Below, in pieces: positions 2,386 to 28,520 of a stretch of DNA of 64,000 bases. The DNA comes from Roridomyces roridus. Taxonomy: Eukaryota > Basidiomycota > Agaricomycetes > Agaricales > Mycenaceae. The DNA lies in the NCBI GenBank assembly GCA_029378245.1, contig JARKIF010000027.1:726910-790909 (forward strand). Direction: 5' to 3'. Position numbers and translations under genes: made by a program. Each line of letters starts with the position of its first letter. Position 1 is the stretch's first letter. The notes under the pieces were generated by a model. That model was not told where the DNA came from and made no database searches. It saw nothing but the letters and a program-made list of their open reading frames with translations.

Positions 2386-2468
2386 AGACGCTCATGTCAG
2401 CTGACCGGTGGGCGGACATTCCCTACGACCGCGTCAGCAAGGTCTGCATGAAGAAAAACGAGTACCGT
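2386..2468 (+). pseudogene. DUF2828 gene, middle fragment between two insertions
   Basis: About 80 bp of coding sequence (…SADRWADIPYDRVSKVCMKK…) continues the DUF2828 protein after the inverted-repeat element. It stops at codon CGT where the LTR of the 25-kb retroelement begins. The next codons of the same frame, FFLHDPEGFQKYLL, are found immediately after the right LTR at 27557. Confidence 0.75.
2465..2468. other. Target-site duplication, left copy (CCGT)
   Basis: CCGT before the left LTR matches CCGT at 27557-27560 after the right LTR. If the LTR is taken to end in TC, the duplication is ACCGT (5 bp), the more usual length for Ty3/gypsy. The bases belong to the interrupted DUF2828 codons. 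Confidence 0.8.
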
Positions 2469-7456: not shown

Positions 7457-7780
7457 GTGAAGTTCGGTTTTGATGAATACGGAGAGTTGCGGATTGAGGG
7501 GTATGCAGAACCCAGAGACGATGGGAAGTTCAATCCGGATGAGCTAAAGGCGGCGTATCTGGTAGCTTCTGAGGATAGTGAGGCATTGAAACAGGATCAA
7601 GCGGCTGCACAGCTCCTAAACGAGTTTGTGAGTGGCGTTGATACAAAGGAAAGCAAGGTTGATGGGCCTACGTACCAGGTATTTACCTTTGATGAGCATT
7701 TACCATCTCATCTGGGGGGAACACGAAGTCGAAGCTCTATCAAAAAGGCCAACAGAAAGAGGAGGAAAACGGTGTCATGA
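7457..7780 (+). CDS. Short ORF between protease and pol
   Basis: About 107 codons in a third frame, opening at a GTG (AAGTTCGG follows), reading KFGFDEYGELRIEGYAEP and ending in a basic tail (KKANRKRRKTVS). The stop TGA overlaps an ATG (ATGA at 7777), but that ATG opens only 26 codons. Elements of this family usually carry a linker here before RT. Likely a piece of the polyprotein reached by frameshifting, or a decayed linker. Function unknown. Confidence 0.4.
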   Translation: MKFGFDEYGELRIEGYAEPRDDGKFNPDELKAAYLVASEDSEALKQDQAAAQLLNEFVSGVDTKESKVDGPTYQVFTFDEHLPSHLGGTRSRSSIKKANRKRRKTVS

Positions 7781-10700: not shown

Positions 10701-11060
10701 CAGATGGTATACAAAGCCACTGGGGGGGATGTTAGGAAATGGTTCTGGTTCTTACCGCAAGTAGTATGGGCTGATAGGATTACAACCCGACGCGGCTTGG
10801 GTTGTTCACCCTATTATGCAGTGACGGGTTGTCATCCCACTGTGCCACTCGACATTGTGGAAGCGACTTGGTTAGTAGATTATCCAGGAGAGATAATCCC
10901 GACAGAAGACCTTGTAGGCTTGAGGGCTAGGGCACTGGCAAAACATAGGCAACATGTAGAAGAGATGCGGCACCTGGAGACTTGGTACTCATTCGGAATA
11001 CTCGAGTTGAGAAGTCGCTCAACACGAAACTCGAACCCAAGTACTTGGGCCCCATGGTAA
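7632..11060 (+). CDS. Pol: reverse transcriptase, RNase H, integrase (C-terminus shifted)
   Basis: Homology is clear from about 7880 onward; the true start is uncertain. RT: KKIDAGVYEPSNSSYRSKFF, FQTPFGALRLVKLPQGWTNS and the catalytic YIDD (PYIDDVPVKGP, near 8690). RNase H: LAVDTSWMAIGIE, KRELYGLKRAL, VVETDAMYIKG supply the acidic residues. Integrase zinc finger: SHDSLGHRG...CHLC (H-H-C-C); core: HVDVAIMG, VTDNAPQFL, NGPVESGHK (D, D, E). This is the widespread agaricomycete gypsy Pol. Reading ends in the wrong frame after EEMR near 10970. The conserved PGDLVLIRNT continues in another frame, with the usual intervening helix missing, which suggests a small frameshifting deletion. No chromodomain follows. 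Confidence 0.9.
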   Translation: MALIQRKARLMGLRTRYLPLMSIYHLIWGEHEVEALSKRPTERGGKRCHEEDTAKECFKCSVHGHVPRLESDSVLDPGIPVLEVFAGKKYKPVALKTKPVFTELPEKYRIQRQIIGDPLKDLPTLPTNPGDFVPTGRYTQERKEGIDKLHDEGFLWDEERKLMHDFVSKHNDAFAWDDSERGSWKHEFFPPVEIPTVEHKVWVERSIPIPRGQLDEFCQVIKKKIDAGVYEPSNSSYRSKFFGVLKKDGKSIRLVHALEPLNAVTIAHSGIPPATDEIASQFAGRACGAVFDLYSGYDHRDIAESSRDYTTFQTPFGALRLVKLPQGWTNSVPIFHDHVTFILKDEIPHITIPYIDDVPVKGPGSRYQDKHGTYETIPENRGIRRFVWEHFQNLNRIAQRLKYCGGTISALKVIICKAEFAVVGHVCSFEGRKPSTDRIGVISRWPPLEDVSQVRQFLGVVGCLRMFIKDYSTKARWLIRLLRKDIEFEWTDKAQGSMDTLKYSVEHCEALKPLNYDWDSDIVLAVDTSWMAIGIEIYQVDPNDPKKRYYAKFDSIPLNEREARFSQPKRELYGLKRALEHMQYWLLGCRRLVVETDAMYIKGMLDNPGMGPNATINRWIEEILMFHFTLKHVKGCTFSPDGLSRRKKQPGDPDYPSPEDGFDDNPPPEQHDDWDYDIEQPADFEDFKAGIDTRGGYFAEVKEEATESTDVLLQFEHQCMDAYLEERGEARMIREKFREKDLEIPQFIMSHIREEEPLLPPDAFKFDPAKRETYPEGMRSVGAKNQDWKLGYVKQWLLDPINNRPKNINPLALRRFIQYARKFFLDPQGRLFRRSADSAHKLVVEKEHRMYMMRASHDSLGHRGIYATRSLIEQRFWWPEMEHDIKWYVQSCHLCQTRKEELLRIPPVPTFTPSLFQKIHVDVAIMGAISNGCRYVVSARDSLSRWLESKGLKADNAAALGRFLLEHIICRWGCPKEIVTDNAPQFLAALEWLNLKYGITGIRISPYNSQANGPVESGHKQMRQMVYKATGGDVRKWFWFLPQVVWADRITTRRGLGCSPYYAVTGCHPTVPLDIVEATWLVDYPGEIIPTEDLVGLRARALAKHRQHVEEMRHLETWYSFGILELRSRSTRNSNPSTWAPW

Positions 11061-11568: not shown

Positions 11569-12029
11569 TTAGAAGCGAGCGAGTCGATAGCGGTTGCAGC
11601 CAACCAAGAACGAGTTCACAATCTCGGGAATGCGAACGTAATTGGGCCCATGACGGTTCTTGCGGTCGTACGCGATTTGGGTAATCTTGATTTCAATGGC
11701 GGCAAGGAGAGTGGCGACACCCTCCTGGCCGAGGATGAGCAGCATCAAAGGTTCCTCGAGGAAACGGAGCTGCAAGGATGAATATCGGCGAGAATACCAG
11801 TATGTAGCGAGCTCACCCAGAGTCTAGCGCATCTGGACATGATCTTGTTCGTCTCCTTGTGGTCTCCGAGCCCGACGAGTTGAAGCAGTTCGTGCGAAGC
11901 GATGATGATGTGCAACCAGTCTCCGCGGAGGTCGGCGGGTGGAGTAAACTCGGGCATGGGAACGATACGGGTAAAGCGAGAGACGAGCATTTTGAAGACG
12001 CAGGGATGGGTGTGGGTAGGGAACTCCAT
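11569..12029 (-). CDS. Antisense cargo gene E (small paralog, 137 aa)
   Basis: Two exons, 12029-11817 and 11769-11569, total 414 nt, phase 0, intact. Exon 1 starts MEFPTHTHPCVFKML and ends CARLW directly at the donor (GTGAGC). Exon 2 begins LRFLEEPLMLLILG and ends with GCNRYRLARF. It resembles gene C: both have a Trp at the exon-1 end, EP(L/F) at the start of exon 2, a long amphipathic stretch (VEIRILQIKF in C, IEIKITQIAY here) and a C-terminal GC(D/N)RYR. No known domain, no signal peptide, no membrane segment. Transcribed against the retroelement. Function unknown. Confidence 0.7.
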
Positions 12030-12254
12030 GGTCCAGGGCGCTCTATTTCAATGCAAAATCGCTAAAAACTACTCGCCTATCATTTCGGAAACACCGGATA
12101 CGACAATTCGATCAGCTGAACCAGGTATCGAACCAGGTACTTGGAAAATCACCGCGTGGACGTCTCAAGTAGGGATTTCTGGGTCAACAATAACCAATTT
12201 ATCACGGAGCTGGGTACACATGGATAGTATCTACGGCCGGAGAGTTATTCTAGC

Positions 12255-12757
12255 TTAGAGTCCGCTGAGGTCGACGCTAGGGAGAGATGAGCGTATTGCA
12301 AGCAGGAGTGCAAATGAACTCACGGCGCGGCGTTGAGGAGGCGCTCATAACCATTGTAAAACTGAGCGCGCTCGGGGATGATAATGGTATGGGCAAGGCC
12401 ACTATCGAGGGTGCCGTCGACCGGGAGCGAAGTGAGGCGCTCCATCTTGGCCTTGACTTCGACGGCAAGCACAACCATCTCGGGGCAACGAGCGGTGTGA
12501 GTGACGTTGAGGTTAGTCAACAGGGGTTCCTAGTAGCCAGGTCAGATACACGTTGGGGAGCTCGGATACAAGGAACGCACCCAGGCATTGAGGCAGGTCG
12601 CTACTCGGACAAGCGTGAGACGAGTGTTGTACTCCGTCGGCGTCTTGAGGAGGTGGTCCGAGGCGAGGAAGACCGCGGCGACACGGGTAGCAGTGCCAGG
12701 GCTGGGGATGAACGCTTTATGGGCGTTGGTAACGAGGATGGAAGTGAATTCGGCCAT
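12255..12757 (-). CDS. Antisense cargo gene D (small paralog, 134 aa)
   Basis: Three exons, 12757-12581, 12529-12324, 12276-12255; the sum of 405 nt keeps frame to TAA. Starts MAEFTSILVTNAHK; exon 1 ends CLNAW at the donor; exon 2 begins EPLLTNLNV and contains EMVVLAVEVKAKMERL. The exon-1 boundary and EPLL match genes C and E, but the rest is more diverged (AQFYNGYERL where C has GCDRYR). Alpha/beta-looking small soluble protein of unknown function. Intron 1 contains a GTATCC hexamer like those in the LTR. Confidence 0.65.
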
Positions 12758-12939
12758 GAATAATTGGGGATTGCCTGTATCCGGCCCTTTATAAGGCGGT
12801 GGCAAGGGTAATCCGGTGGTAGTGTTATTCCGGGCTGTGAAACAGCCATGTGTGCGACAATCGCCGTCTTAGGTGATCGCGTGGACGGGGCGGTTTGAAA
12901 TTGAGGGGACGCCGTGATCCAGAAGAAGCCAAAAACGGA

Positions 12940-13546
12940 TTATTGCTTAAATTTACATGACAATCTAAGTATCCGGGCGCTACTACTGGAGCCTCTGGCT
13001 GTCCTTGAACGACTCTATTCCGCGACGGGAGTACGCGATTCTGGGGACAGAATCAATGGTCGACCGGGGGTAGAATGTGTGAAACGTACCTTCAGCGGTA
13101 AATCGATAGATACCAAGCTCGACCTTGATCTTCTCAATTCCGGCGCGGTAACGGTCGCAGCCAGACGAGAAGGTGATGAGGGCGGCCTCAAAGCTCGAAT
13201 CGTAAGGGACGCCAGTGTGCTGGAACTCGAACTTGATCTGGAGAATACGAATCTCGACCGACGACAATAGAGCCTGAATCTCGTATTCGGCGATAACGAG
13301 CGAAAGGTTGGGTTCCGTAAGGAAAGGCTCCTGTATTAAGGACGGTTCAACCGGAATACTGTGAAAAGAGAGGATGGGACCACGAACCCAAGATCTCATG
13401 CAGTCGGTAGCGCGCTTGAAGGTAGCACGAAGAGGAGCGTTGGGGCTGAGGTTGAGCAACGCGTCAGAATCGGTACGAGCGCTGGCCCAACGAATCTCGA
13501 AGCCAGGGGCAGGCTTGAACTCGTCAAGAACGGTGGGGAGGCTCAT
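12940..13546 (-). CDS. Antisense cargo gene C (small paralog, ~152 aa)
   Basis: Three exons, about 13546-13388, 13330-13090, 12998-12940; total 459 nt in frame. Starts MSLPTVLDEFKPAPGFEIRW; exon 1 ends CMRSW at the donor (GTTCGT). Exon 2 starts EPFLTEPNLSLVIAEYEIQ and includes VEIRILQIKFEFQ and GCDRYRAGIEKIKVEL. An alternative reads through intron 1 without a stop (the intron is 57 nt), so a retained-intron form is possible. Paralogous to E and more distantly to D. No known family recognised. Confidence 0.6.
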
Positions 13547-14306
13547 TGGTGAAGCAGGACAAAGGAAAGATGGGGTGGATACCGAAATTTTTGGTCTCGG
13601 CCTATTTGTGACCATCTCCCTGACCTGATAAATTCATTTGAACAAGCGCTCCACAGTTCCAATCGAAAATTCCGATCTGCAGAGTCGCCATCCATACGGT
13701 TTGGGTCCTGGAAACAATGATGTGCCTGAAGGAGATTGGAGGATTGGCAATTGGGAATTGCTGGGGCTGGATACGACTTTGCTTACTCCCGATACATGGA
13801 ATAGAAGACGGATACAAGTCTTCTACGACAATGTAGGGACGGGGAGTCGGCCGGCTGGCTGGGATACCTGGGAATTTGAGGTGCCAAGCCAAAAAGATCT
13901 GGTGAAATGCCGGACCGTCGGTATCTACGCGTGGAAGTGACGTAAAAAGATCGACGATGGTGCCGGGCTAACGTGAACACCGGATATTTGGCAGGATCCG
14001 ACAATCAGCCTGTACGTAACAACCGGTTGGCGGTGGAGCTCGGCTGAGGAATCCTATACTCGTGGATACCCTCCTTGAAACAGGGCGAAATGAGTCCAGG
14101 CGAGAAGACATTGCATTGTATGCTGGTATCTAGCTAGGAATACTTTTCTAGGGAGACGGATACAAGGAATGTACTAGGAGTTGGTCGAGGGGAATCGAGT
14201 TAAACGAGTGGAGTAGGAGTTAGACAAGGAAAAATCGCAGTATAAGGAGTGGACGCGTATGAGCTACGACTTGAATTGTGATTTGGAAAAGAAGGAGGGG
14301 AAAGCT
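13547..14306. other. Intergenic gap in the cargo
   Basis: No gene supported. This 760-bp gap would hold the promoter of gene C and the 3' end of gene B. It is studded with GGATAC hexamers (for example near 13769, 13809, 13862, 14062, 14159), the same motif that is dense in the LTRs. Confidence 0.5.
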
Positions 14307-15928
14307 CTAGTTAGAGCGGCCGTTCTTGGCCTTGGCGGACTCGATACCAGGGATGAGCACTCCATGGCGAGTAAAGACACGGTGGGGAACGTTGGAGCCT
14401 CCAGGAATCGGGATGGAATTGTCGCTATGAAGAGAATAAGTGACCTAGGGAATGAGGGTGACCAGATACGTACTTTGTGGGAAAGTCGATCGGCGTCAAG
14501 TTACGATCCTCCATCTGGCGACGAACGTGCTCGTACTCGTTAAAGACACCATCGTAGTAGCGAAGGTGGACAGCGAGGCGACCACCAATCTCGGTGAGGA
14601 GAGTGCGATACGCGCAATCGGTCCGCACGAGGCCGTCCGCAGAAACGAGCATCTTGGAGTGACGCTCAGAGAGCCGGGAGGCCTTCTCGAGAGCGTTGCG
14701 AATATCCTCGTAGGACGCAATATCTGGAAAGGCTCAGAGAGGTACAGCGGGGAAAGCAAGGATACATACCAATATTGTCGTTCGGGGCGCTGGCGGAAGT
14801 GCTAGCCTATATCGAGCGTTAGTGATCGGTATGTCAAGGTATCCGAGATCGTACCCGGGCGTTACCAGCCTTGGGACCGGTAGGAGGTTGTTTCTTGTTG
14901 CCAGGAACGTCTTTGGACTTGACGTCAGGCTTGGGAGTAGCCTTCGAGGGAGGCGTAGGGGTGACGGTCTGAGCGGTAGTGTCCGTGCGCTTATAGAAGC
15001 GAAGATTGGCCTGCAATTAGTATGAGAGGGAATAGGAACCGACTATGGCTACTCACCGCCTTTTTGTTGCGAGGCTTGGTGTCGACCTCGGCCTCCTCGT
15101 CTGAAACGATGAAGGTAGGCTCAATGGCGGGCGCTTTAGTCTTACCCTTGGGCTTGAAAAAGGTCAGAACGGGGTAGAGCACAAAAATAGGGGAGACGCA
15201 CTGGCTCGGAGACTTCATCTACATCCATGAGGCCATCATCGTCAACCTCCTCCTCTCCGGAAAGGTTGATGGTGTCCAAGCTGCGCGAACGACCACGTTT
15301 CTGACAAGGATACTGAGTATCGAAAAAGCACGGTGCACGGAATACACACCTTGCTAGAACTCTGGCTGTTCTCCGCGGACGGGGGAGTCTTGAGGTACTG
15401 GCGAACAGCGGCACGAGTCGCGCCAGCGGCGATTTTCTGGCGGACGGTGCGGAAGAGCTTGGCGCGTTCAAGGAACGGGTGAACAGAATCGGGCGCGACT
15501 TGGTTCTGGAAGGAAGAGTCGGTACCATACTTGTGAACCACCTGATCGACCTTGTTTACAGTGCTCGAGAGCAAACTGTGAACGCCGTCGATCGGGCTAG
15601 CGTCAAACAAATTGGTATCCGACATGAACGCAAGCTGAGAGACGTTTAGCTGCAAGTATCCGGACCAGGGGAGATGAAAACGTACCCAAGCCTGAGCAGT
15701 GCGATCCATTGAGTCGCGAAAAACTTTGGAACTGGTGTTCTTGTTGCCAAGGAGGTTCTCGGACTCGTCGCGGGCGTCGACCCAGACAGGTTGGATGGCG
15801 TCGGGGAAGGTAACGCTGGCGGCCTCAGAGAGCGGACTCATGTTGGAATAGAGAGATGAGGCAAAGTCGACGGTACGGGGGTAGAGTTGGGTGAGGAACT
15901 CGTATGGGGTGTACAAGTTATATTCCAT
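14307..15928 (-). CDS. Antisense cargo gene B (432 aa)
   Basis: Eight exons by hand: 15928-15686, 15649-15350, 15300-15202, 15152-15057, 15010-14855, 14806-14770, 14723-14474, 14424-14307. The 1299 nt keep frame throughout. Starts MEYNLYTPYEFLTQLYPRTV. Exon 1 ends TAQAW at the donor, the same Trp-boundary as genes C, D and E. A helical N-terminal half (LFRTVRQKIAAGATRAAVRQ) is followed by a basic RKRGRSRS-like patch, an acidic stretch (GEEEVDDDGLMDVDE), a Lys/Pro/Thr-rich linker and a compact C-terminal module (LLTEIGGRLAVHLRYYDGVF). Suggests a nuclear protein. No family recognised. Confidence 0.65.
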
Positions 15929-16689
15929 CGGGTACTTTACGCGATTCGGTCTGTTACGTTTTGCTGAGGACAGCAAAAGGTTCAAATGGGGGAGGAAGGG
16001 TATTACCATGTGGTTGGGAAAATTTTACCGATAAATGAACCGCACGGCAAACCAGTTCTGACCCAGACAAACCGAGCTCGAGACCCGGATACATGAGTAT
16101 TCGACCGGATACGGTCATGAAACGGGGTATATTGTGGGTCCTATCAGAAGAAGTTCTAGAATACGTTCCAAGGAGTCATGATCAGCGTGCTCGGACCTTA
16201 CATCATGACTCAGCGTATCCACAATTTCCAATGAGAAGGCGGAAGAAGGAAAAGACTTGTTTCGGACTAGGCGATGTCAGAGATACTCAGGTATCCGGCA
16301 AAGACAAGAGTACAGACGATGCATATTCTCCCAAAAACTAAAGTTGGGAGCCCACTGAATCCTCTACGGCGAGAAAGATTATCTGGGATGCGGATGTGCA
16401 GCCAGGAACAGAAGAAGCAGGATCGACAGTGATACGCGATGGTGGATACGGCAGTATGAGGTGATGATTGACCTTTTGTGTCAAAACACCGGTGTATCGG
16501 GCTCGTTTCTATTAGAAACGAGTAATAGCCGACAGACAGCCTAGCGTATCAAGCCAGATCCAGCTTAAAGTCGACAGTTCAATCCCTGATATAAGATTTT
16601 CTTTTATCTCAGGTTTTGACTTAGAAGGCTCGCACGTTTAGAAACAGGAAAGCATTTGATATTTGGCCTCTGGCCCAAAGCAAGTGTTA
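15929..16689. other. Intergenic region upstream of gene B
   Basis: No gene supported; it should contain the promoter of gene B. GGATAC/GTATCC recurs (near 16086, 16108, 16216, 16290, 16443). It ends where the inverted repeat of the nested DNA transposon begins. Confidence 0.5.
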
Positions 16690-16955
16690 TACAAACTGTA
16701 TCTAAACTTAGACTCGACACCAGTAAGCACGCAAGGGTTGGCAGATTTGATGATAGTCGATCAAAGCCGTTCCGCGTAGCGACTGGTGGATAATCAGCCG
16801 ATTCTCGCATGGAGCGGAAGTTGCCGAGGTTTCGTGGACTTAGCGTCGAAAGCTCGAAAAGCTGGGTCCACTTTTGTCGAGTTGGCCCGGCGGGTGGATA
16901 TAGGACTATACTACCAACTTTTCTAAGACTTTTGTATGTTTCCGTTTCTCTTTAA
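16690..16955 (+). repeat. Left terminal inverted repeat of the DNA transposon
   Basis: Reverse-complement match to the right end. Blocks such as TTAGACTCG (16709), CGACTGG, GATAATCAGCCGATTCTCG, TTTCGTGGACTTAGCGTCG and CGGCGGGTGGATATAG pair with the right arm in the same order. The inner end is an A/T-rich stretch ending CTTTAAAG. Confidence 0.8.
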
Positions 16956-17030
16956 AGGGTGCCGTTCCTGAGTTATTGAGGCCGGAAGATCGGCCGTTCC
17001 CAATCGGGAAGTGACCCCTCTTTGCTCTCA

Positions 17031-19589
17031 ATGCCTTACGAGGCCGTCGCAGAACCGGACCCAACATGCGTACAGCACACCAAGGACCTCATATTCGGTA
17101 TCTGGAACGTCTCTGAGCTTCGCCCGCACCAAGAAATTGCCGGGATTCACTTGATACAAGGCAAGAATGTTGTCCTCGATGTCCCTACTGGCGGTGGCAA
17201 GACCCTTGCATTCTGGTGGCCGCTTCTGTACCACTGGGACCCGAACGTCAACGCCGAGGGCACGCGCAAGATCTTGCTGGTCGTCAGTCCCCTGGTGGCT
17301 CTCATGAGCGAGCAAGCGGAGGATCTGTGCAATCGAAAGATCCCCGCACTTGCGCTCACTTCACATACGCCAGATTTGAAACAGGCGCTCAAGGTCGGCC
17401 CATTCTGCTTCTCTCTACCCATTCTGAATCTCGCGCCAGGACGCCGGTCAAAACAAGTTTCGTGTGCTGTTTGTGAGCCCCGAGATGGCCGTTGGTGCAG
17501 CTTTCCACGAGCATGTCCTGAAAGCTGCACCCTTCCGGGACAATATCATCGGCTTCATTGCCGACGAGTTCCACGCCATAGTGGAGTGGGGTACACCCGA
17601 CTTCAGGCCAGAATATAGCGAGCTCATCGTTCTTCTGCGGCGGTTACCCACTGGTGTTCCTGTGATGATGGGCTCAGCGACACTGCCTGGTATTCTTCTC
17701 CAGGATGGTCTTCGGCTTCTGGCGATTACAAAATACGAGCACATCGCTTTCTCGAACAACAAGCCAAATGTGGCGCTCTCTGTGCGCCTCATGCAGCATC
17801 CCCGAACCACATACGTGGATCTCATCAATCTTTTCCCTCACGATCCTTCCCCGAATGCACAAGACTTCCCCCAAACTCTCATCTACGTCAACAGCCTGCA
17901 GGAGTCAGAGGACATCCAAGACTTTCTGCGGGCCCACTCGCCAAAATCCATCCCCGCCGTGTCGTTCGAGTTCTACCATCGGCACATTGCTGAGTCTCGC
18001 AAGATTATCATCCAGGGAGCTCTTCGAGACGGCTCTTTACGTGCAGTCTCCGCAACGGATGCTCTTGGAATGGTGAGGCAATAATATTGAACTGCCATAC
18101 ATATGCCAACGATTTCGTTCCAGGGTATGGATTTTTCGAAGGTTCGGCGAGTGGTCCTTTGGCGCGAACCCAAGTCGTTCCTCTCGCTGGTGCAGAAAAC
18201 AGGCAGGTGTGCACGGCAGATCCAAGACCGCGGCGAGATGATTCTTTTCATCACAAAGGCGTCGTATGCTCGTCATTTGGCGCTTCTTGAGGCGGAAGGC
18301 GATTTTGATGAGAGTGACCCTGAGGACGATGATAGAGAGGAGGGTGTCGATAATGATGACGCGGCAGAAGAGCCTCTCGACAGGGAGGCCGCAATCGGGC
18401 CTGATGAGTTAGAGGAGGAAGATGAAGTCCCAACTACATCCTCAACGGCGAGCGCAGGTTTTAAGGCGCAAGACTCCCTCTTTTTAGCCCGGTTCATTGT
18501 GGAACCCAAATGCCGTCGTGACCCTTGGAACGAGTACTTCCAAAATGCCAAGAAAAGTACGAATCTAGTTATCATTCAATTTCTCTCACTCATCTTTGAG
18601 CAGAGGTCTTCATCCCGCAAGACCCTGATACCCGCTGTTGCGACTGCTGCGATCCATCCCAGTTTCCGGTTGATAGCATTGAAGCAGTGCTCTTGCCGCT
18701 CGACAAACCCGGCCGCGGCTCGAAACCAACCCCAGAGCTTTCTTTGGCTGTGGTGGAAGCTCTTCAAGCATGGCGCGACAAGATTATTGCTCGAGACTTT
18801 CCGAACCAGTTGAACATCACCGGCAAACTCATTCTGTCGAACAAAGTTATCCAGTCCATTGCCGCTCGTCCTCGTGCAATCACAACACCCCACATTTTCG
18901 TCTCTTCCATCATTTGGAGATACGGGACAGTTCAGGATTTCCGTTATGGGCTTGAGGTTGTCTCTGAAATTTCAAGGCTACTTCTTGACCATCCAGACCT
19001 CGAGGAACAGGAGCGAGAAGCCGCGCGGCGCGAGAAAGCATATCAGCAGCTGACCGTTCTAGCTTCGAAGGATTATCGACGTAGGCTCACCGCCCTTGGT
19101 GACGAATGCTGGGAAGCTGTTGCTTCAGTTGGAACGGGTAACATGGTGCAACGCGGCACAGGCGTAAATAGGCGGATGGTGCCGGAATTACGGTGCCAGG
19201 TATTTCTTGCTCTCCCGCGCAAAACGGTACGTGCTGAGCATACTATCTGTCATCGCTCCTAACTTCATTCCACATAGTTCCACCCGCAATATTATGAGCA
19301 AACTCAACGGCCAATCTCAATGTCGACAATTAAACAGCTCACCCATGCCACAACACAGAAGGGGGGCTACTCCAATTTGTCCGATTATGTGGCAGATTGG
19401 CGACTGTTGTTTTTAAATGCTCGGACCTACAACCGGGATGAATCGCAGATTTTCCGTGATGCCGTCTTTCTGGAGGGTGTCTTTGAGAACGCTGTTGCCA
19501 CCGCCGCTGTTCGAAACAACTTGGAGATGGAATGGAAGCAGATTCAGGCAGGAAAAGACTTGGAGCAGGATAATTTTGATTTGATTTAG
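17031..19589 (+). CDS. RecQ-type DNA helicase with C-terminal bromodomain (787 aa)
   Basis: Five exons: 17031-17393, 17440-18072, 18124-18556, 18604-19226, 19278-19589 (2364 nt, in frame). Walker A is DVPTGGGKTLAF (residues ~50-60); the DEAD-box position reads ADEFHAIVEWG; motif III-like MGSATLPG; C-terminal helicase motifs TDALGMGMDFSKVR and QKTGRCARQ. A RecQ-type zinc-binding module follows: CRRDPWNEYFQN...CCDCC. After an acidic linker and ~200 helical residues comes a bromodomain: YYEQTQRPISMSTIK, YVADWRLLFLNARTYNRDES, FRDAVFLEGVFE (Asn in NARTYN is the expected acetyl-lysine contact). Helicase for unwinding element or target DNA is inferred; the bromodomain suggests docking on acetylated chromatin. 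Intact, so possibly active. Confidence 0.9.
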
Positions 19590-19620
19590 ATGAACTCTGA
19601 TAAACGGCGTACAAATATAA

Positions 19621-22600
19621 CTATTTTGACATCTCATCCACCATGTCTGTCGCCGACTGCAGAATTGCGTTCAACATTTGGTACGGTTCCTCGTCGTCCA
19701 TCTCCAAATCCTCTTGTGTCACGTCATATGCCTCCTGTGCGCTCGCCTCCTCCTCCTCTTCCTCCTCGTTCCGCAAGGGATCATGTTCGGCACCAGACTC
19801 CCTGGTGTACTGGGTGGTACGCTGCGTGAACTTGGCAAACGCGCCGCGTGTGTTGATGTAATCGGCACCCTCTTCCATGAGATCACGGGCGCGCTGGACC
19901 TTCTCCTTTTGAGGACGCTCTGCCCAGTGCTCCTGGAGCCGCTCTTGCTTCAAACCATCTGCGACGCAGCTCACTTCCTTCGTCATGTTCGGAACTGTAT
20001 GTTTGGTGCCGGAGTCTGGGATATTGAACGTCTTGTGCACTGTTTGCATGGCGTCGCGAAGTGCGAAGATGCATACAGTGATCATTCCGAGCCAGGCCCA
20101 GCTGCGATTGACCCCTTTCGCATTGTAGATGACCTTCGCCCAGAAATTCTGGTGCTCTTGCAGAAGATCCACCTCCTTGAAGCCGTTGGGAACACCCTTG
20201 ACATTGACGAGCCAATTATGAAGAAAGAATTTCCTGTGGCCGGTTCAGTATCAAGCACATGAGGACAGGAGAGATCGACGCACCGTAATGTTTCGGGATA
20301 GGTTTTGAGACGAAGGAGGGTCTCAAAGAAAGCATCCGCATACTTCGGCATTGTTTTTGGTGTGCGCATCATGACAGCGCAATACCGAAAGACAAGGACA
20401 ACACGTCCTATGTCGCCCGCCTTGATTGACTGCACCAGGAGATGATAGAGGAGCGAATCACGGTTGTAGAGGATTGAATTCTCGAAAGCGGGATCACGCT
20501 CCTCCTCCGGCCGTTTGCATGCCTTGTCGTAAGCTGCTGTGGTGTACAGGGAATCATATACCTTGTCTGCAACCTTCTCAAATTCTTCAAAGGTCGCTTG
20601 GGACGCCCACTCGGCAAAGTCAGCCTTGCCGCAGTGAATCCGGAAGGCGTCGAGCACATGGCCGGCGGAGGATATTTGAAGTAGCTCGTGAGACGGTTTC
20701 CACGGGGCGGCTTTCTTCGATTTCCATCCAGCTGAGACCGGCTTGCGCTTGAGGAGCGTGTTATTCTCCCACCAGAGCCCGCCTGCGACGGAGTTGGGCT
20801 TGCCCCAATGTTCGTTCATCACCAAACGGCTAACGGCCATTTTGCCGTGGAACGCGCCAAAGCGATCCAGAAAATTCTTGAGGCTTTCCAGAACCTCGGC
20901 GTCGCTCAACTTGTCGCTATTACGGTGAGCCCCTTCGACCTAGAAGAGAGTTAGCAAAGCAGAATGATGAACCAGAGGCAGCGCACCGTATGGAAGAGAT
21001 TGACCGTCAAGAGATCTCCGTTCACGAAAATGAGACCGTGCGCCTTGAGTTCTTCTGCCGTGACCTCAAGCTGCTTCAAAATTGCTTGAATAACCTTGAT
21101 AGTTCCTTCGAGACTGGACTCGTCAAGATGCATGGCAGCGAAAGGGAACTGTTCCGTGAGGTGCACAAGGATCTGGTCGATCTCCGGGCATGGCCCAAGC
21201 TGCTTCAACAGCCGGTGGAGTTGCTCAATATGTTCGAGCGCGATCTTTTTCACTTGCCAGCGAAGACATCTGTCCAGCGTTGCGGCATCCTCAGCAGATG
21301 GTAGGGCATCCTCGGCAGTCCAGTCAAGATTGTTCTGCCGAGACGTGCGCAGCGGTTTAAGCTCGATGGGGAGAGTCCCGTGGGGGACTGAGGTGCTGTT
21401 GGTGAATGGATCATACAACGGAATGAGTGTTGCTGTCGTCCCGCTGTCGAAATGATTCTTGTTGTCGAGACGCTGAGATTCCACTCGGAATGCGATGTTG
21501 AGGTTGTCCCACACGATGGAGCACATGCAGCGGCGAAAGACAGCCCGGAATTCGGTCATACCCTCCTCGGAAAGTGCTTTCACGTACTTGATGACGGATC
21601 TGTACGACAGAGAAATGCCGGCGTGTGCAAACACTTCAATCTCGCGTTTCGAGGCTCCAGAACCAAGGAGAAACAGGGAGATGACCGCCTGGAAGTTATT
21701 GGCCTTCTGGGAGCGAAGGAGGCTGATCATGGCGCACACGGTGGTAAAGACCTGACCAAATCGGGATTAGATTGATTCTTACCAAAAACGGACTTTCTCA
21801 CCAACGACGAGTCGCGACGTTTTGACTCTGCCTTGGGTGTCCACGACGCCTCACTCAGAAGCTGCCACATGTTGGGTGCAAGCTCCCGAAGACTTTCCGC
21901 AAGAGTTTGGAGGTCGAACGAATGCAGCAAATCCGAGATCTTGGTGCCCTTCGGGCGGGACAGATGGCCCTGAATCGCCGCTCCCTCTCTCCTCAAAACT
22001 GCGCCCATACGTTCCAAAGCAAACGTGTCCGCCTTGTCTGGAGCCCTGTCTGCGATCTGCTGCATCAACTCCACCCCGTTACTCCGAAATGCCTTCGTCA
22101 GGAGCCCCGTCATGGCTGGATCCTTCGCGTTGGGTGCGAAAAGTGCGTGAAGTATATCTTTCATCGTCGCGCCATTCTTCATCTTTTCCCGAAGAACTCC
22201 GTGCAGCTCCGTCTGTAGCGCTTGCTTCAGTCCCTGCACCTTGTTTGTGCTTCCGAGGGCGTCAAACTGCATGGAGACGTCCAGTGCGGCCTGTTTCGTG
22301 CCAAAAAGATCGTGGCCTGTCCAGTCTGGTGGGGAGCCTGGAGTCTGATCTGCGAGGGGGTTCCGCGAGACTCTGTTCTTCCGAGGTCGACCACCCTTTG
22401 GCTTCTCGGGGCTGAGGTCCATGACCGACATGGGACTGTCGGATACATGAGGAAGTGTGGGAGTCGCAGTGGGAGTTACCGCGTCGCTGCCAGGGGAAGG
22501 CGGTTCCGACGGTGGTAAGTCGAATGGGAAAGGCTCCTCCATCGTGAGCTGATCATCTAATCTCGAGAAGGAGGGCGAGCTTGGCGCGGTCCGCGGAGGG

Positions 22601-22833
22601 GTATTCAGGTCGGCATGGGCGTCGAAGGTGTCTATAGCCTGGCTGGGCTCGCCAGCAGGTGGCACCGGAGTCGAGTCCAGGGCAAGGAGGCTGCCTCTAG
22701 TGCGAGTTTTGCGAGGAGACGTTGTAAGCCGCGGCGTGGCTGCCAGCCGCTTCCTGGTTGTTGCAGGTATGTCATACTCGTCCACAGAGCGCGCTCTTTT
22801 GCGGCCTTTACCCTCCTTTGCAGTGAAAACCAT
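19621..22833 (-). CDS. DUF6589 protein, probable transposase (1021 aa)
   Basis: Four exons: 22833-21802, 21751-20987, 20939-20284, 20233-19621 (3066 nt, in frame). The N-terminal ~200 residues are low-complexity with an AT-hook-like GGRPRKNRVS; then a helical region; then a core with IVWDNLNIAFRVE, TTATLIPLYDP and LIFVNGDLLTVNLFHTV; then FHGKMAVSRLVMNEHWGKP and a C-terminal acidic tail. I recognise the core as DUF6589, a basidiomycete family. The two Asp residues on strand-like segments (WDN, NGD) look like the first two acids of an RNase-H-fold DDE transposase; a third acid is not assigned. As the only other gene in a TIR element it is the best transposase candidate. Intact. Confidence 0.8.
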
Positions 22834-23049
22834 GAGGAGGAGTAGTATCGTCTTGATCACAATTTTACCCCTAAGATTGCCGAGTCTATGATTGCACCGC
22901 GCACAGCTGCGGCTCACACATCCTCGAGACAATGTATTAGTCCCACCCTGACACATATGTATACATGTATCACACTGAGTAACGCGCGGGTCCCCAGTTT
23001 TAAGCAGACAGACTGCAGATCTTGAGGCCCCAATAACTCGCGAACGAGG

Positions 23050-23312
23050 AGCTTTAAAAAAAAACGGAAACATAGAAAAATCTTAGAAATATTCATACTT
23101 GAGGCCTATATCCACCCGCCGGGCCAACTCGACAAAAGTGGACCCAGCTTTGCGAGCTCTCGACGCTAAGTCCACGAAACCTCGGCAATTTCCGGTCCAT
23201 GCGAGAATCGGCTGATTATCCTCCAGTCGCTTCGCGCAGTGATCCCGCCCGCCCATCATCACACCAGCGAACGCCGACTGGTTTACGAGTCTAATCTAAA
23301 CTACGCGTGTAG
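23050..23312 (-). repeat. Right terminal inverted repeat of the DNA transposon
   Basis: Mirror of the left end. It contains CTATATCCACCCGCCG, CGACGCTAAGTCCACGAAA and CGAGAATCGGCTGATTATC in the order expected for an inverted copy, and the diverged outer part ends near CTAATCTAAACTACGCG. Confidence 0.8.
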
Positions 23313-23417
23313 AAAAGAACAGTACTCGATATATTCTGGCGCGTAGAGCGCAGTCCGATACTGGAACATCTGCAAAAATCAAAGGCGAAAAGCGCCCGGC
23401 GCCCGAAGACGCAACCC

Positions 23418-25597
23418 CTATTGAGACGAATCTCCACCCGGCGCACCACCATCGTTCCCTGCTGGAATAGAACCATCCGCTTCCTCGACAGGCTTGGCGA
23501 CGAGGGAAGCACGGAGTTGGCCAACCTGGGCGACATCGAGCCGAAGAGCGTTGAGGAGGGAAGAGAGCTCGTCAGCCTCAGGAGGGCGTGTTGACTTGGA
23601 GACGACGTCGTTGAAGTTGTGGATGAGGGTGTTGATCCCATGAAGAGCGGGGAACATCAGCATCTCGTCGTCATCCTTGCCTTGGACCTGCTCGAAGAAA
23701 GTCTCGAAGGCAGCTCCACCAGCATGGTCCATGAGGGAGCGGAAACGACGGAACATGTCGCGGAATTCGTTGAGCAAGTCCTCGCGAATGAGGCGGGATG
23801 TCTCCTCGGACGACTGGATCTGAGCAACGAGGCGAGAGATGCGCGACAAGTTGATAGGAGGCTCTAAAGGGAGGGCAGAGTTAGGAAAAACAAGGTAGGA
23901 GCGAAAAGGGAGGACGCACCAGATGGGAAAAGGAGCGCGCGATATGACTCCGAGGCCCACATCAACTTGCGAATCCTCTCCGGGCTAAGCGCGTGGTCAC
24001 AAATCATCGTAATCTTGAGGCGATTACAGTTGTGGCAGGGTTGGCCGTACGCGGCGGGTTCGCAGGGTTCTGCAGCGCGAAGAGCGCAGGTGAGGCAGCT
24101 ATTCGGAGGCTAGAAATGGGTCAGTACGAGGCCATGATAGGAGAGAAGAGATGGGAACTGACCACAGAGGTCGAGAGCATCCCTCCCGCCTCATCCGTCG
24201 CCGTATGAGGGATGAGCGGCTCAGGAATGGTCGATTCGGGAGCGGCGGACTTCGCTTGGGCCGAGGACTCGTGCATGTGGTCGTAGAGGCGGAGTTTGGT
24301 GTTGCCGTTGGCGCGGGTGAAGCTAAGCGAGAGGACGTAGCCAGGGATCGAGCCTGGAACCGAGGTCACTAGCAAAAGGGTCAGATAGGGTGAGGGAACG
24401 AAGAAAGATACACGCACCATGCCAAGTATCACGCTCCATGATGACCTTCTTGGCCAATTTGCGAAGCTGGGTGGTCAGATGCTCGACCTTCTGATCGTTG
24501 TTCATCTGAAGGAAGGAGGATTAGTGGAAGAAATGGAAGAATACGGGTATGGACGTACCGTTTTCCAAGTCAGGGGCTGATCCTCGGGGACGATATCAAG
24601 CTGCTGGTCGTCGATGGTGGAACTAGGCCGTCTGGACTTGGCGCCGGAACGGGAACTCTTGGGACGAGGAGGCACGACCACGGCAAAACTGGGCCCCTCC
24701 TCCTCTTCAGAATGGTCGTCTTCGACCTCGACGTTGGCGCGGCGCTGAAAAGGGGTTTAGGAAATGAAAATGAATCAAAGAAGGGACATACCTTCTTGGA
24801 GGCAGGTTTCCCAGAACCCTTTTTACCAACTGGAGGAGGTGTGACTGATCCAGCGACGGACCCATCGTCCTCCTCCTCCTCAGAGACAGAATCGTCGGGC
24901 CTAGAAAAGGAATCAGTACCGAGTTCAAACGAAAAGAAGATGGGGTATCTCACTTTCGTTTCGAGAGAGGCTTTACTGGCGAAGGCTTTGCTGAAGAAGG
25001 CGGGGCGCGGCCTTGGAATATGGTTTTGAAGGACGGGGCTTTGGCCGTGCTAAGCAGAGTGTGGGGCGATTTGTGGTCCGTCTCGAGCTGGTAGATCTTG
25101 GCAAAGGACGCGGACTAAACACGCTGTCGTTAGAACAAAGAATGGGAAAGCAGAGAAACGGTGGGTACATACCGAAGAAGGAGGCCAGGGGAAGCTCTCA
25201 TAGTCAGGATCGGACTTCCCGCTTCCCTGGGAGACCCTCTTGAGTCCTCGGAAGAAGAGGAAAGTCGAGCCAGAAACAGCCTTTGGGCTCTCCCAAGAGT
25301 TCAGCGCGGTTCGCTAGATACAACGATCAGGAGTGGAGCTCGGAACGAAAAAGAGAGAGTACGCACTACGAAAGGGGTGATCTTCTCAAGGACCGACTGG
25401 CACCAGATCTTGGAGCCGACCTCCTCTTCCTTGTGGGCGACTCGGAGAACGTAGTTGGCCGAGCCAACGCAGTCGGAACCCCGGAAAAAGTCGAAGAAGG
25501 ATCGAGAAGGAGCGCCGACGGGCCCAACAGGGGGTGTCCACTCGATTGTGAGCTTCTTGGTGGCCTGAGTTTTGGCTGGCAAGGAACTGGTAGACAT
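23418..25597 (-). CDS. Antisense cargo gene A (585 aa, six-Cys module)
   Basis: Nine exons by hand: 25597-25367, 25313-25173, 25114-24954, 24900-24792, 24744-24559, 24505-24418, 24368-24163, 24109-23920, 23863-23418 (1758 nt, in frame). Starts MSTSSLPAKTQATKKL. The middle has alternating acidic and basic low-complexity (SEEEEDDGSVAGS; KKGSGKPASKKRR), suggesting a nuclear protein, and a short coiled coil (VEHLTTQLRKLAKKVIMER). Exon 8 carries a Cys array C-x2-C-x7-C-x8-C-x2-C-x8-C (starting CLTC), likely metal-binding. The C-terminus is helical (LLNEFRDMFRRFRSLM). No family recognised. It lies 480 bp from the 3' LTR, which it faces with its start. Confidence 0.7.
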
Positions 25598-26076
25598 GGT
25601 GGTAGGAGAAAGAGAAGGGAGTGCGGCGATCGAGCCAATTGAAAAATTTTCATGGCTAATGATTGGCTGGAAAACAAGTCTAAAGAAAGACTTGCAATCT
25701 GCAAGCTGGGAGAATCGAAGGCGCCCCTAAATTACGAACTAGAAGTTTGATGGCGGGCAGTGCTATTTAATTGCAGGGTCTGACTCATGGATTTTCAGGG
25801 CAACCAGAAGGTCCGCCGAGGAAAGTCCCAGCCGCCGGCAAACTCTATTTTCGTCGGACTTGAAGCGGTGGGGAAGTTACCAAAGGTGTATTTGGGGTCA
25901 GGAGGTTGTATCCGGGAGCAAATGTCCGAGCCTCGTGTATCGGAACACGGATCGACGGGGACTATTAATTTGGTTCCACCTCCTCGGTGTCACGACAGAG
26001 TCGATCATGACGGAACCCATGGATTAACGAATTGCAAAAGCGCGAGGAAACGAGTTGACCGGGGACGGTCAAGATT
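25598..26076. promoter_or_regulatory. Region upstream of gene A, before the 3' LTR
   Basis: No gene supported. This 480-bp stretch lies between the start of antisense gene A and the polypurine tract, so it must hold gene A's promoter unless the LTR drives it in antisense. A CTTT-rich run on the minus strand around 25680 is the only notable feature. Confidence 0.35.
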
Positions 26077-26091
26077 TAAAAATAGGGGAGA
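26077..26091 (+). other. Polypurine tract
   Basis: AAAAATAGGGGAGA sits directly before the TG of the 3' LTR. This is where plus-strand DNA priming is expected, and it shows that the cargo's right edge is a genuine retroelement end. Confidence 0.75.
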
Positions 26092-27556
26092 TGATAAGCA
26101 TGGAATTTGACTGCCCTTGAAAACGCGCGTTTTGCACGATTTCAGAGGTAGTATCCTAGCTAAGTCATCTCAGTACAAGACTGATGTTGAGCCCAGAGAC
26201 AGTCAGTGTGGTGGATACTTAAGAGTACTGTACGGGTTGAAGGGTATTTACCTGAATATGGCCGACGGGCTCACTCCGAAACATGTAGGAGTTGTGGATA
26301 CCTGCTCTACCAATGGGATACACCAATTAAACAAGTTCTTAACCGTTGTACGATTGTCAGCCGTTCGAACCTTGGTGCGAGTGCAATTCGGAGGTTCGGA
26401 AGTTCACGGGATGATGGGCAAGTCGGCCGAAAAGCCTGAAACATGAGTAGACCGCCGAAGCGGGTCCGAAGGGAGTGACGTAGTTGTCATCAGCAGTCGG
26501 GACAAGGAGGATCCGGGTCGGATACTAGTCTTCAAACTAGTATCTGCTGGTATCCGGGACAGGTAGTCGGAGATATGGGTATCGTTCTGGACCTACAACC
26601 TATGGGCGTACGTCTGGAGGGTATACAATCAAGGGAGAGGTCGGATACGACTTCACTAAAATCAGTCGAGTCATGGATCAATGTTGGAGTCACGGATCGA
26701 CAGGTCCGCCACGCGGAATCATGGCTTGACACACCGGCCGTACACGATGCCGGTTCTGATCAACCAATCAGGGTGTTTCCATTCCAGATACCAAGGATAT
26801 TTTTAATTATTGCGCCATTCGTTTGTACTATCATATGATTCTCGGACCTGTATAAAGTAGATAGAGTGCTACCCTAGAGGGCAGCGGATACTTCCCCCAC
26901 TAGCAAGCTACCAGCTGCGATCAAGGGTTTTGTCCGAGGCTTTCGACGGTGCATTGCGTAGTTAAGCAATCGCTATTGAAAATCTAAACATTTGTTTGTT
27001 GGCTATTGTGTGTGTGACTTGAGTGTGAATCAGTATGTTGGAATCAGTATCTGTTGGATTGTGTCGTACCGTGTGTCTGTCAAGGGTTATTTGTGTGTTC
27101 AGAGTTGCGAAGTGTCGGAATCTACGAAATCCGTGTTGTATCGGTCGCTGTCGTCTTCGGATACCAGTGTGAAAGGGATCGAAAGACCCAAATACCTGCT
27201 TTATTGCAAAACCCCGGCTTTAGCCAAACTCAATCTATCTTTTGTGTTAGCTGTGAAGCTTTACCATCTACAAAACGCTTTAGAATCGTCATTCTTGGTT
27301 TACATCAAGGATCTCTGTTCGCAATACTTTGTTTCGACATCGTATCCGAGACTATATCATTCAATTCCCTACAACCTTTACAAGGCCCTGTATTAGGGAT
27401 TTATACTCGCCACATTCCCGCTATTCAATAGTTGTCACTCGCCCAGGAGCTTCGTGATTGGGTTAGTTGGATATAGATTCGTCTGTATCTCGACTCATCT
27501 GGTTAGATTCTTCGAGTGTTGTCGATTTCTATAGTAGGTTTAGAGCACATACATCA
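26092..27556 (+). repeat. 3' LTR of the gypsy element
   Basis: Same 1465-bp repeat as the 5' LTR with about four substitutions clustered in its last 250 bp. Followed directly by CCGT, the target-site duplication, and then the continuation of the DUF2828 frame. Confidence 0.95.
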
Positions 27557-28520
27557 CCGTTTCTTCTTGCACGATCCCGAGGGTTTCCAGAAATACCTCC
27601 TCTCGATTGACAAGGGGGGGCGGCGGCGGCCTGTCGATTGCGTGGAGGCCGCCACCCTCAAGCCGCACGAGCTCACTGGAGAATTAGCTTGACTGAGAGT
27701 GCCCTATACAGTATATCCCGAGCTGCAGAAGCATCGGGAGGCGCTCGTGGAGGAGGACCGACGGGTTATTGAGTCGCAGTGGAAGACGCTCGTGCACAAC
27801 CTGCGCGAGGCCGGGTCGATCGAGAACGCTATCGCAGTGTGCGATGTCTCGGGGTCGATGGGCTCCATGGGGTGCTTGCAATATCACCACCGCTACCCCG
27901 AACAGGTTTCCGTTCACACCGAAGTGTTGCCCGCCGTGTCTCTCTCCCTCCTCCTCGCTCAGCTCGCCAAACCGCCGTTCAATGGATTCATCACTTTCTC
28001 GCAGGACCCCGAGTTCGTCAAGCTGGATCCACACAAGAGTCTTCGTGAGACTGCCGTGGGCATGGGGAGCGCTCCTTGGCAGCTTAATGTGGACCTGTAT
28101 GCTGTCTTTATGCACGTCATACTGCCTTTGGCGATCAAGAACAAAGTCAAGCCCAAGGATATGGTCCAGCGCGTATACGTCTTCACGGATCGGAAATTCG
28201 ACCAGTGCGTTGTCGGTGTCGAGGCTTGGGACGTCCAGCAGAGGGTCGAGCTCGCTCGGGAGGTGCATCCGGTCCTGGGGCAAGGAGGATTGGGAGTGGG
28301 AGTGGCCCCGGTGGCGGCTGAAGAAGAAGCGGCTCCAGTGGTGGACGACATATGATCGGATTGGACGGGCGTTCAAGGAGGCGGGGTATGAGGTGCCCAA
28401 GATTGTCTTTTGGAATCTGGGGTTCCGAGTCTTAAAATTTATTTTTAAGCTCGGTCTTATCGGCCCGTTGTCCGCCAAAGTGGGGGTCCAACTTTTCGAT
28501 GACGTCAATGTCGTGTGTTG
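27557..28520 (+). pseudogene. DUF2828 gene, 3' part (vWA domain)
   Basis: Continues the protein broken at 2468: FFLHDPEGFQKYLL, then VCDVSGSMGSM (the MIDAS-like DxSGS of a vWA domain), FNGFITFSQDPEFV, KDMVQRVYVFTD and, in another frame, FKEAGYEVPKIVFWNLG. An in-frame TGA lies near 27690, possibly inside an unrecognised intron ending TATACAG. The C-terminal motif is in a different frame from the vWA core, so the copy is either spliced in a way I did not resolve or frameshifted. With two insertions upstream the gene cannot be functional in this allele. Confidence 0.75.

What the first reader, a model, noticed from the sequence alone, without database searches (positions are those of the whole stretch)
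11569..25597. A gypsy retrotransposon carrying five intact spliced genes in antisense between pol and the 3' LTR
Between pol and the polypurine tract lie about 14.6 kb; about 8 kb of it (excluding the nested DNA transposon) encodes genes A, B, C, D, E, all on the minus strand. Hand-built exon models keep frame perfectly in every one (585, 432, ~152, 134, 137 aa, with 9, 8, 3, 3 and 2 exons). Introns inside a retrotransposon are only kept if they are antisense to the genomic RNA, which these are. LTR identity, purine tract and target duplication show the cargo is inside the element. Extra ORFs, some antisense, are known in a few plant gypsy elements, but I know of no described five-gene antisense module like this in fungi.
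Basis: partly seen in the sequence, partly recalled or inferred. Interest (0 to 1): 0.88.

Follow-up and report, generated by a model that had tools for sequence, protein, structure and literature searches.

The report
Retrotransposons carrying conserved antisense spliced genes
A jumping element in the genome of the mushroom Roridomyces roridus carries, written backwards between its enzyme gene and its end, a set of intron-containing genes of its own that natural selection has kept, and related elements in the same genome carry similar sets.

Summary
Window 2469-27556 is a Ty3/gypsy-type LTR retrotransposon (LTRs 1461/1465 identical, 4-bp target duplication) with five antisense spliced genes between pol and the 3' LTR and a nested 6.6-kb DNA transposon. 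The host is Roridomyces roridus, not Rhizoctonia. Six of six loci with pol at least 95% identical carry the cargo, two of them damaged. Among copies, exon third positions vary like introns (12.2%, 12.5%), first and second positions less (4.2%, 2.2%); dN/dS is 0.11-0.14 against the three more distant copies, like pol. A second family (pol 80-84% at protein level) has the same kinds of genes in the same order, with shared intron positions. More distant elements (pol 56-64%) carry antisense genes with a six-cysteine, Zn2Cys6-like cluster: 31 of 42 tallied matches had a listed pol within 6 kb, and all 31, from 16 pol loci, were antisense and downstream. A hairpin plus purine tract marks the 3' end and recurs 5' of internal antisense genes. 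Antisense ORFs here are known in plants, and one (brtn) in a fungus: a new variant of a known kind. Likeliest function, inferred: nuclear regulators of the element. No expression or binding data; no homolog found outside R. roridus.

The parts
2465..2468 (.). target-site duplication CCGT, left copy
2469..3933 (+). 5' LTR, 1465 bp, starts TG, ends CA
4031..5650 (+). ORF in gag position, no Pfam hit
6111..7427 (+). aspartic protease ORF (PF13975)
7632..11060 (+). pol: RT, RNase H, integrase; lacks about 82 bp near its 3' end relative to other copies
11569..12029 (-). gene E, 137 aa, 2 exons (12029-11817, 11769-11569)
12255..12757 (-). gene D, 134 aa, 3 exons (12757-12581, 12529-12324, 12276-12255)
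13015..13546 (-). gene C, 141 aa, 3 exons (13546-13388, 13330-13090, 13040-13015)
14307..15928 (-). gene B, 427 aa, 8 exons, first intron 15685-15635; N-terminal half resembles C, D, E
15959..15978 (.). internal hairpin TTTTGCTG-AGGA-CAGCAAAA, about 30 nt 5' of the gene B ATG, followed on the + strand by AAATGGGGGAGG
16709..23293 (-). nested DNA transposon with a DUF6589 gene and long terminal inverted repeats; duplication ATCTAAACT at 16700-16708 and 23294-23302
23418..25597 (-). gene A, 585 aa, 9 exons; six-cysteine Zn2Cys6-like cluster
26055..26072 (.). terminal hairpin TTGACCG-GGGA-CGGTCAA
26078..26091 (+). polypurine tract AAAAATAGGGGAGA
26092..27556 (+). 3' LTR, 1465 bp
27557..27560 (.). 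target-site duplication CCGT, right copy

Best explanation
A clade of Ty3/gypsy-type LTR retrotransposons in Roridomyces roridus is ambisense. gag, protease and pol run one way; [quoted passage not shown] In the two best-studied families these are, reading back from the 3' LTR, a zinc-cluster gene (A), then after an internal hairpin and purine-rich tract a gene (B) with an N-terminal domain predicted (weakly) helical in a relative, then two or three short genes made of that domain alone (C, D, E; C/D-like and E in family 2). Shown: position, orientation, splicing models, retention in copies, purifying selection, recurrence in diverged elements. Inferred: the genes are transcribed from antisense promoters near the 3' end and near the internal hairpin; their introns survive retrotransposition because the sense genomic RNA does not carry them in spliceable orientation; and the proteins act in the nucleus, the cluster protein binding DNA of the element and the small proteins assembling with B, to regulate the element's transcription or its chromatin.
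For: Cargo present in 6 of 6 listed loci with pol at least 95% identical, directly followed by the LTR in C460, C451, C357 and C472. Codon-position bias; 12 indel events in 996 intron bases against 5 in 4301 exon bases. dN/dS of concatenated antisense genes against C451, C90, C357: 0.127, 0.108, 0.144; pol against C90 and C357: 0.147 and 0.100. Family 2 carries A, B, C/D-like and E homologs, antisense, same order; the intron after a conserved Trp (Leu in family-2 B) is shared by B, C, D, E and their family-2 counterparts. Six-cysteine motif: 15 antisense, 0 sense in 14 regions, 0 in 20 shuffles. 31 of 31 tallied cluster-protein matches with a listed pol within 6 kb are antisense and downstream. 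In nine diverged loci all 42 tblastn matches of antisense proteins, 29 of them to a locus other than the query's own, are antisense; two loci had none. Public annotation predicts seven such proteins, and UniRef calls two of them Zn(2)-C6 fungal-type.
Against: No RNA, protein or binding data. The zinc cluster is below Pfam's cut-off (PF00172: best 16 bits against 21; none for A). No solved fold matched at E <= 0.001 and the model is weak (mean pLDDT 58.7). No homolog outside R. roridus was found. In 5 of 14 regions the motif was absent, one of which holds only genes B-E. Against the closest copies C472 and C460 dN/dS is higher (0.222, 0.315) on 17 and 22 substitutions, and pol against C460 gives 0.518 on a damaged copy. 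11 of 42 cluster matches had no listed pol nearby.
Confidence: 0.6

Rival explanations
1. One-off capture of host genes: a stretch of host DNA was carried along and is decaying.
For: The genes have introns and look like ordinary fungal genes.
Against: Present in all six close copies and in a diverged family, under purifying selection, and no locus away from these elements in three protein searches of the genome.
Confidence: 0.03
2. The antisense RNA, not the proteins, matters: transcripts pair with genomic RNA and feed silencing or autoregulation.
For: Antisense transcripts of other LTR elements have been proposed to do so (PMC7264820, passages read).
Against: Selection acts on codons: position 2 varies 2.2%, position 3 12.2%, introns 12.5%. 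An RNA role could exist in addition.
Confidence: 0.07
3. The antisense block descends from another mobile element or virus that inserted backwards and was co-opted; its proteins now serve replication.
For: An internal copy of the hairpin plus purine tract lies within the block; the one outgroup element examined has the hairpin shortly after pol and no cluster motif.
Against: Pfam gives nothing for A and B; no search for relics of another element inside the block was made beyond that.
Confidence: 0.15
4. The proteins act outside transcription: particle assembly, nuclear import of cDNA or choice of integration site.
For: Small proteins of one shared domain could be assembly partners; a cluster protein could tether to chromatin (reasoning only).
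Against: No match of the small domain to the gag-position ORF in a profile search; nothing here tests these roles directly.
Confidence: 0.2
5. Counter-defence: the proteins oppose host silencing of the element, which would explain their fast divergence and tandem duplication.
For: Between families the antisense proteins are about 28-60% identical in matched stretches where pol is 80-84%; cluster genes number 1 to 4 per region.
Against: Within family 1 dN/dS is low; no test for positive selection was made.
Confidence: 0.15

Closest known systems
Antisense additional ORFs between pol and 3' LTR (aORF-3R) of plant gypsy elements: Grande, RIRE2, Retand
   Same: Same place, same orientation, present in most copies, conserved about as well as other element proteins (PMC7264820: passages and section 5 read; PMC11963269: passages read).
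   Different: Neither text contains the word 'intron', though PMC7264820 asks that spliced antisense transcripts be looked for; in Retand most carry a TRP28 domain. Here there are up to five multi-exon genes, no TRP28 hit in those scanned, and a Zn2Cys6-like cluster.
brtn of the Boty-like gypsy element of Botrytis cinerea
   Same: Antisense additional gene in a fungal gypsy element (known here only through PMC8365987 and PMC7264820, passages; the original paper was not read).
   Different: One gene, in an ascomycete; no sequence was available for comparison.
Antisense genes of retroviruses such as HBZ of HTLV-1
   Same: Antisense, nuclear, regulatory (named in PMC11963269, passage).
   Different: No sequence comparison made; different size and gene number (recalled).
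Fungal Zn2Cys6 binuclear cluster proteins (PF00172)
   Same: Cysteine spacing close to C-x2-C-x6-C-x8-C-x2-C-x6-8-C; PF00172 is the only Pfam family listed for three of the four annotated antisense cluster proteins.
   Different: Scores are below the curated cut-off; the genes lie inside retrotransposons; gene A has seven residues between its second and third Cys.

Membership tests
Ty3/gypsy LTR retrotransposon | paired LTRs with target duplication | tested here: met
Ty3/gypsy LTR retrotransposon | protease, RT, RNase H, integrase in that order | tested here: met
   protease in ORF 6111-7427; in the pol ORF RVT_1 277-425 (below its cut-off), RNase H 490-624, H2C2 845-899, rve 917-1008 (below its cut-off)
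Ty3/gypsy LTR retrotransposon | primer binding site complementary to a tRNA | not tested
   TGGAGCCCACC follows the 5' LTR at 3936; no tRNA was matched
[quoted passage not shown]
aORF-3R (antisense additional ORF between pol and 3' LTR) | conservation like that of other element proteins | tested here: met
   within family 1; between families they diverge more than pol
aORF-3R (antisense additional ORF between pol and 3' LTR) | own antisense promoter and transcript | not testable with these tools
   no RNA data
Retand lineage | antisense TRP28 domain (PF04195) | tested here: not met
   Pfam scan of A, B and a family-2 E protein lists no family; C and D were not scanned
Zn2Cys6 fungal cluster (PF00172) | six cysteines with the family's spacing | tested here: met
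   15 antisense motifs found by a pattern with that spacing, slightly widened
Zn2Cys6 fungal cluster (PF00172) | score above the curated cut-off | tested here: not met
   best 15.7-16 bits against 21; gene A no hit
Zn2Cys6 fungal cluster (PF00172) | fold of two short helices around a zinc pair | tested here: inconclusive
   AlphaFold model of P0004 has helices 92-96 and 111-116 beside Cys pairs 91/94 and 110/113, local pLDDT 78-83 over 91-120, overall 58.7; no PDB match at E <= 0.001
brtn of Boty | sequence homology to brtn | not tested
   no brtn sequence at hand

The most novel reading that the evidence does not exclude
These are ambisense retrotransposons: a gypsy lineage that has assembled, on the strand opposite its genomic RNA, an expanding set of spliced regulatory genes (tandem zinc-cluster genes and tandem copies of a small partner domain), with a hairpin plus purine tract that is both the plus-strand priming region of the cDNA and the promoter or 5' leader of the antisense genes, so that one signal links replication and antisense expression.
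Probability: 0.3. Interest if true: 0.82.

Novelty: new variant of a known kind. Interest (0 to 1): 0.64.

Why it matters
The function of antisense genes of LTR elements is described as unknown in the review read (PMC7264820). Here they are numerous, spliced, under measurable purifying selection and shared by element families with diverged pol, and they carry a recognisable cysteine cluster. This gives concrete proteins and sites to test, suggests that a retrotransposon can keep many introns by placing genes on the strand that is not packaged, and warns that transposon-borne genes of this kind may be counted as host Zn(2)-C6 regulators in mushroom annotations (P0004 and P0007 carry that UniRef label).

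Tried and rejected
Rejected: Rhizoctonia as host. Host-gene capture. The 82-bp difference in pol as a spliced-out sense intron: no GT..AG ends in the four copies in which it was seen directly. Frame-keeping alone as proof of genes: the permissive model built equally long sense 'genes'. Relation of the small domain to the gag-position ORF: no profile hit. Structure models were weak (mean pLDDT 58.7 and 48.9) and fold searches gave no significant match; no zinc-cluster protein was among the rows shown, from which no conclusion is drawn. Three protein-database searches found nothing outside R. roridus; they need shared 5-residue words, so distant relatives are not excluded. Ten paper searches covered open-access papers only.

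Weaknesses of the hairpin evidence. With paired arms required, 15 sense and 3 antisense sites were found in 92.7 kb, against 0.25 and 0.14 expected in shuffles. The covariation count (5 of 7 pairs changed on both sides) is not independent, because its 12 sites had been picked by palindromy. A search that ignores the arms and asks only for GNGGAC and a purine tract gave 16 sense matches, not far above the 9.3 of shuffles, and 5 antisense; 13 of the 16 and 1 of the 5 have at least 6 of 8 arm pairs. The site at 13037 in gene C overlaps a splice acceptor and may be chance. Family-2 copy C13 and partial copy L006 lack the terminal hairpin.

Weaknesses of the cluster evidence. The alignment has all six cysteines in 11 of 11 rows, but the rows were chosen by that motif. 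Of the 15 motifs three are near-identical family-2 copies and one (C469 region, 9953) may lie outside its element. Regions C464, C223 and C458 were fetched because protein searches had already matched there.

Limits of counts. Dropped rows were matches of a query to its own element (3 and 3) and further rows of contigs already listed. 31 had a listed pol within 6 kb, all antisense and downstream, from 16 pol loci; one of them (C2) is weak (E 0.5), and some reach only the C-terminal part of the query. 11 had none: C257 and C26, three rows each, all in the first 5 kb of their contigs, and weak matches in C113, C168, C490, C480 and C90. One search scored only 40 of 398 pol candidates. Gene B entered in its 432-aa form, and genes C and D with their last codon cut or overrun. 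The C57 copies are rearranged and were not resolved. L029 gave no cluster motif and one antisense match to a C346 protein; L028 (C35) has a cluster of different spacing that the pattern missed; L015 and L027 gave no match.
Full report
What is there. Window 2469-27556 is a Ty3/gypsy-type LTR retrotransposon. The LTRs match at 1461 of 1465 bases, run TG to CA and are flanked by CCGT on both sides. A protease ORF and a pol ORF with RT, RNase H and integrase domains lie on the + strand. A 6585-bp DNA transposon with a DUF6589 gene (16709-23293) is nested inside, with a 9-bp duplication. Between pol (to 11060) and the 3' LTR (from 26092), leaving out the nested element, lie about 8.4 kb that carry five minus-strand genes.

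Host. Proteins found are named FB45DRAFT_... [Roridomyces roridus], and their contig lengths equal those of C113, C112 and C472 of the window's own assembly. The window therefore belongs to this Mycenaceae mushroom, not to Rhizoctonia.

Are the genes real? The first gene finder, with loose introns, built long models on both strands, so frame-keeping alone is weak evidence. With strict introns the models listed for the sense strand were single-exon in the window and at most two-exon in the diverged copies; the same strict settings recovered A, D and E but not B and C as drawn. All 20 antisense introns are 46-58 nt. The stronger test uses copies: among window, C460, C472, C451, C90, C357 and two partial copies, variable sites are 4.2% at codon position 1, 2.2% at position 2, 12.2% at position 3 and 12.5% in introns. 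Indels: 12 events in 996 intron bases, mostly of one base, against 5 in 4301 exon bases. Of those five, two are multiples of three (18 and 9 bp in A), one is a deletion of about 0.9 kb in B of C472, one is a single base in A of the partial copy C456, and one is a single base at 15645 in C451 that falls in the intron of the preferred B model. In aligned codons no internal stop was found in C460, C472, C451, C90 and the two partial copies; C357 has one in A. dN/dS over the concatenated genes is 0.127, 0.108 and 0.144 against C451, C90 and C357, and pol gives 0.147 and 0.100 against C90 and C357. Against the closest copies C460 and C472 the antisense value is 0.315 and 0.222 on 22 and 17 substitutions, and pol against C460 gives 0.518 in an alignment with seven stops.

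Is the cargo part of the element? All six listed loci with pol at least 95% identical carry it. Two are damaged: C472 lost most of B, and the C90 cargo ends within A. The LTR follows directly in C460, C451, C357 and C472. Searches with family-2 E, a family-2 B domain and the A C-terminus gave 29, 17 and 11 matches, all on contigs C190, C460, C472, C451, C90, C357, C473, C113, C13, C112 and C57, in or beside elements of the two families.

A second family. Elements at C473, C13 and C112 (pol 81-84% at protein level; LTRs 100%, 96.8% and 96.8% identical) carry antisense homologs of E, a C/D-like gene, B and A in the same order. The A match is weak by itself (28% identity, E about 0.002) and rests also on position. 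E, B and the C/D-like gene share an intron right after a conserved Trp, or Leu in family-2 B. C, D and E are paralogs (C-E 2e-13, C-D 1e-9; B-E only 0.002-0.006); that the N-terminal half of B is the same domain rests on this, the alignment and the shared intron. The block thus grew at least in part by duplication of one domain.

Across the clade. Antisense genes downstream of pol in further elements carry a six-cysteine cluster, C-x2-C-x6-C-x8-C-x2-C-x6-8-C or close to it. A pattern scan of 14 pol-downstream regions found it 15 times antisense and never sense, and not once in 20 shuffles. Nine of the 14 regions have it. Of the five without, one holds only genes B-E, C473 reads it out of one frame, C57 is rearranged, the C113 genes lie outside the stretch fetched, and L015 showed none. 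Four motifs occur in the C469 region, three in C458, two in C464. Whole-genome protein searches compared with pol places gave 42 tallied rows: 31 have a listed pol within 6 kb and all 31, from 16 pol loci, are antisense and downstream; 11 have none listed. Each of the ten pol loci of the C464 group has an antisense match to P0005, in C13 and C473 to its C-terminal part only. In nine diverged loci all 42 tblastn matches of antisense proteins are antisense, 29 of them to a locus other than the query's own. The one outgroup copy examined (C461, of five) shows no cluster. UniRef names P0004 and P0007 'Zn(2)-C6 fungal-type domain', but Pfam scores stay below cut-off. I call it Zn2Cys6-like.

A shared hairpin. 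An inverted repeat with near-constant centre, C[TC]G-NGGA-C[AG]G, followed by a GGGGAG-like purine tract, lies before the 3' LTR of the window element and of family-2 copies C473 and C112. In several elements it recurs 5' of an internal antisense gene: about 30-50 nt from the likely ATG in family 1 B, family 2 B, C35 and C464, and roughly 90-190 nt in C223, C346, C458 and C469. A search that ignores the arms found 16 sense matches, 13 with paired arms, and 5 antisense, 1 so paired. The terminal copies of families 1 and 2 run into GGGGAGA|TGA at the LTR start; their internal copies do not. The outgroup C461 has the hairpin about 0.6 kb after pol, so its first role is probably at the 3' end (plus-strand priming or RNA structure); use as antisense leader or promoter would be secondary. 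This is inference. In yeast Ty3 the purine tract lies in a base-paired region (PMC11381356, passages).

How it probably works. The sense genomic RNA contains the antisense genes as reverse complement, so their introns are not spliced from it and are copied intact by reverse transcription. After integration the antisense genes can be transcribed and spliced. A and B have short basic stretches (KRK, KKRR, KKR). The cysteine cluster suggests DNA binding. I therefore take regulation of the element itself as likeliest, at about even odds, with counter-silencing, assembly or targeting as open rivals. Nothing here measures function.

What is known. Papers on plant elements (PMC7264820, passages and section 5; PMC11963269, passages) describe antisense ORFs at this position, conserved and possibly regulatory; neither text contains the word 'intron'. 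One fungal case, brtn in Boty-like elements of Botrytis, is cited there and in PMC8365987 (passages); the original paper was not read. Searches aimed at fungal, multi-gene or spliced antisense modules showed none in the titles and abstract starts listed; one search listed no paper. On this evidence it is a new variant of a known kind.

Noticed in passing
window 26055-26091 and 15959-15995; L008 4249-4290; L025 2190-2235 and 3770-3810; L028 2195-2235; L027 (reverse orientation) near 615: Hairpin with near-constant centre and varying arms followed by a purine tract, at the 3' end and again inside elements of this gypsy clade; possibly an internal priming site or antisense leader.
   Followed up: partly
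window 10930-11060: Pol of the window copy lacks about 82 bp present in the other copies near its 3' end; the missing piece is not an intron.
   Followed up: yes
pol against cargo in C90 and C357 compared with the window: Synonymous divergence is lower in pol (0.042, 0.075) than in the antisense genes (0.096, 0.105), which suggests mosaic copies formed by recombination between subfamilies.
   Followed up: no
LTR of this family genome-wide: 40 LTR copies scored and listed out of 204 candidates, but only six loci with pol and cargo; many are probably solo LTRs.
   Followed up: no
L006 1677-5391 (on its reverse strand): Internally deleted copy at C13: a 286-bp LTR piece, then part of gene A, then a full LTR.
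   Followed up: no
window 16709-23293: DNA transposon with long inverted repeats (225-bp arms at 87%), a DUF6589 protein and a 9-bp target duplication; its ends match other places in the genome.
   Followed up: partly
window 1118-1215 and 2288-2385: 98-bp inverted repeat, 98% complementary, just left of the element; probably another small transposon.
   Followed up: no
window 51021-53483: ORF with Retrotrans_gag and zinc-knuckle domains, a second retroelement in the window.
   Followed up: no
window 30868-32394 and 44230-45372: F-box protein ORF and FAD-binding monooxygenase-like ORF, probably host genes.
   Followed up: no
L014 (reverse orientation) 2737-2235: Antisense ORF ending in a CCHC-like zinc knuckle (read by eye) near the cluster gene in the C346 element.
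   Followed up: no
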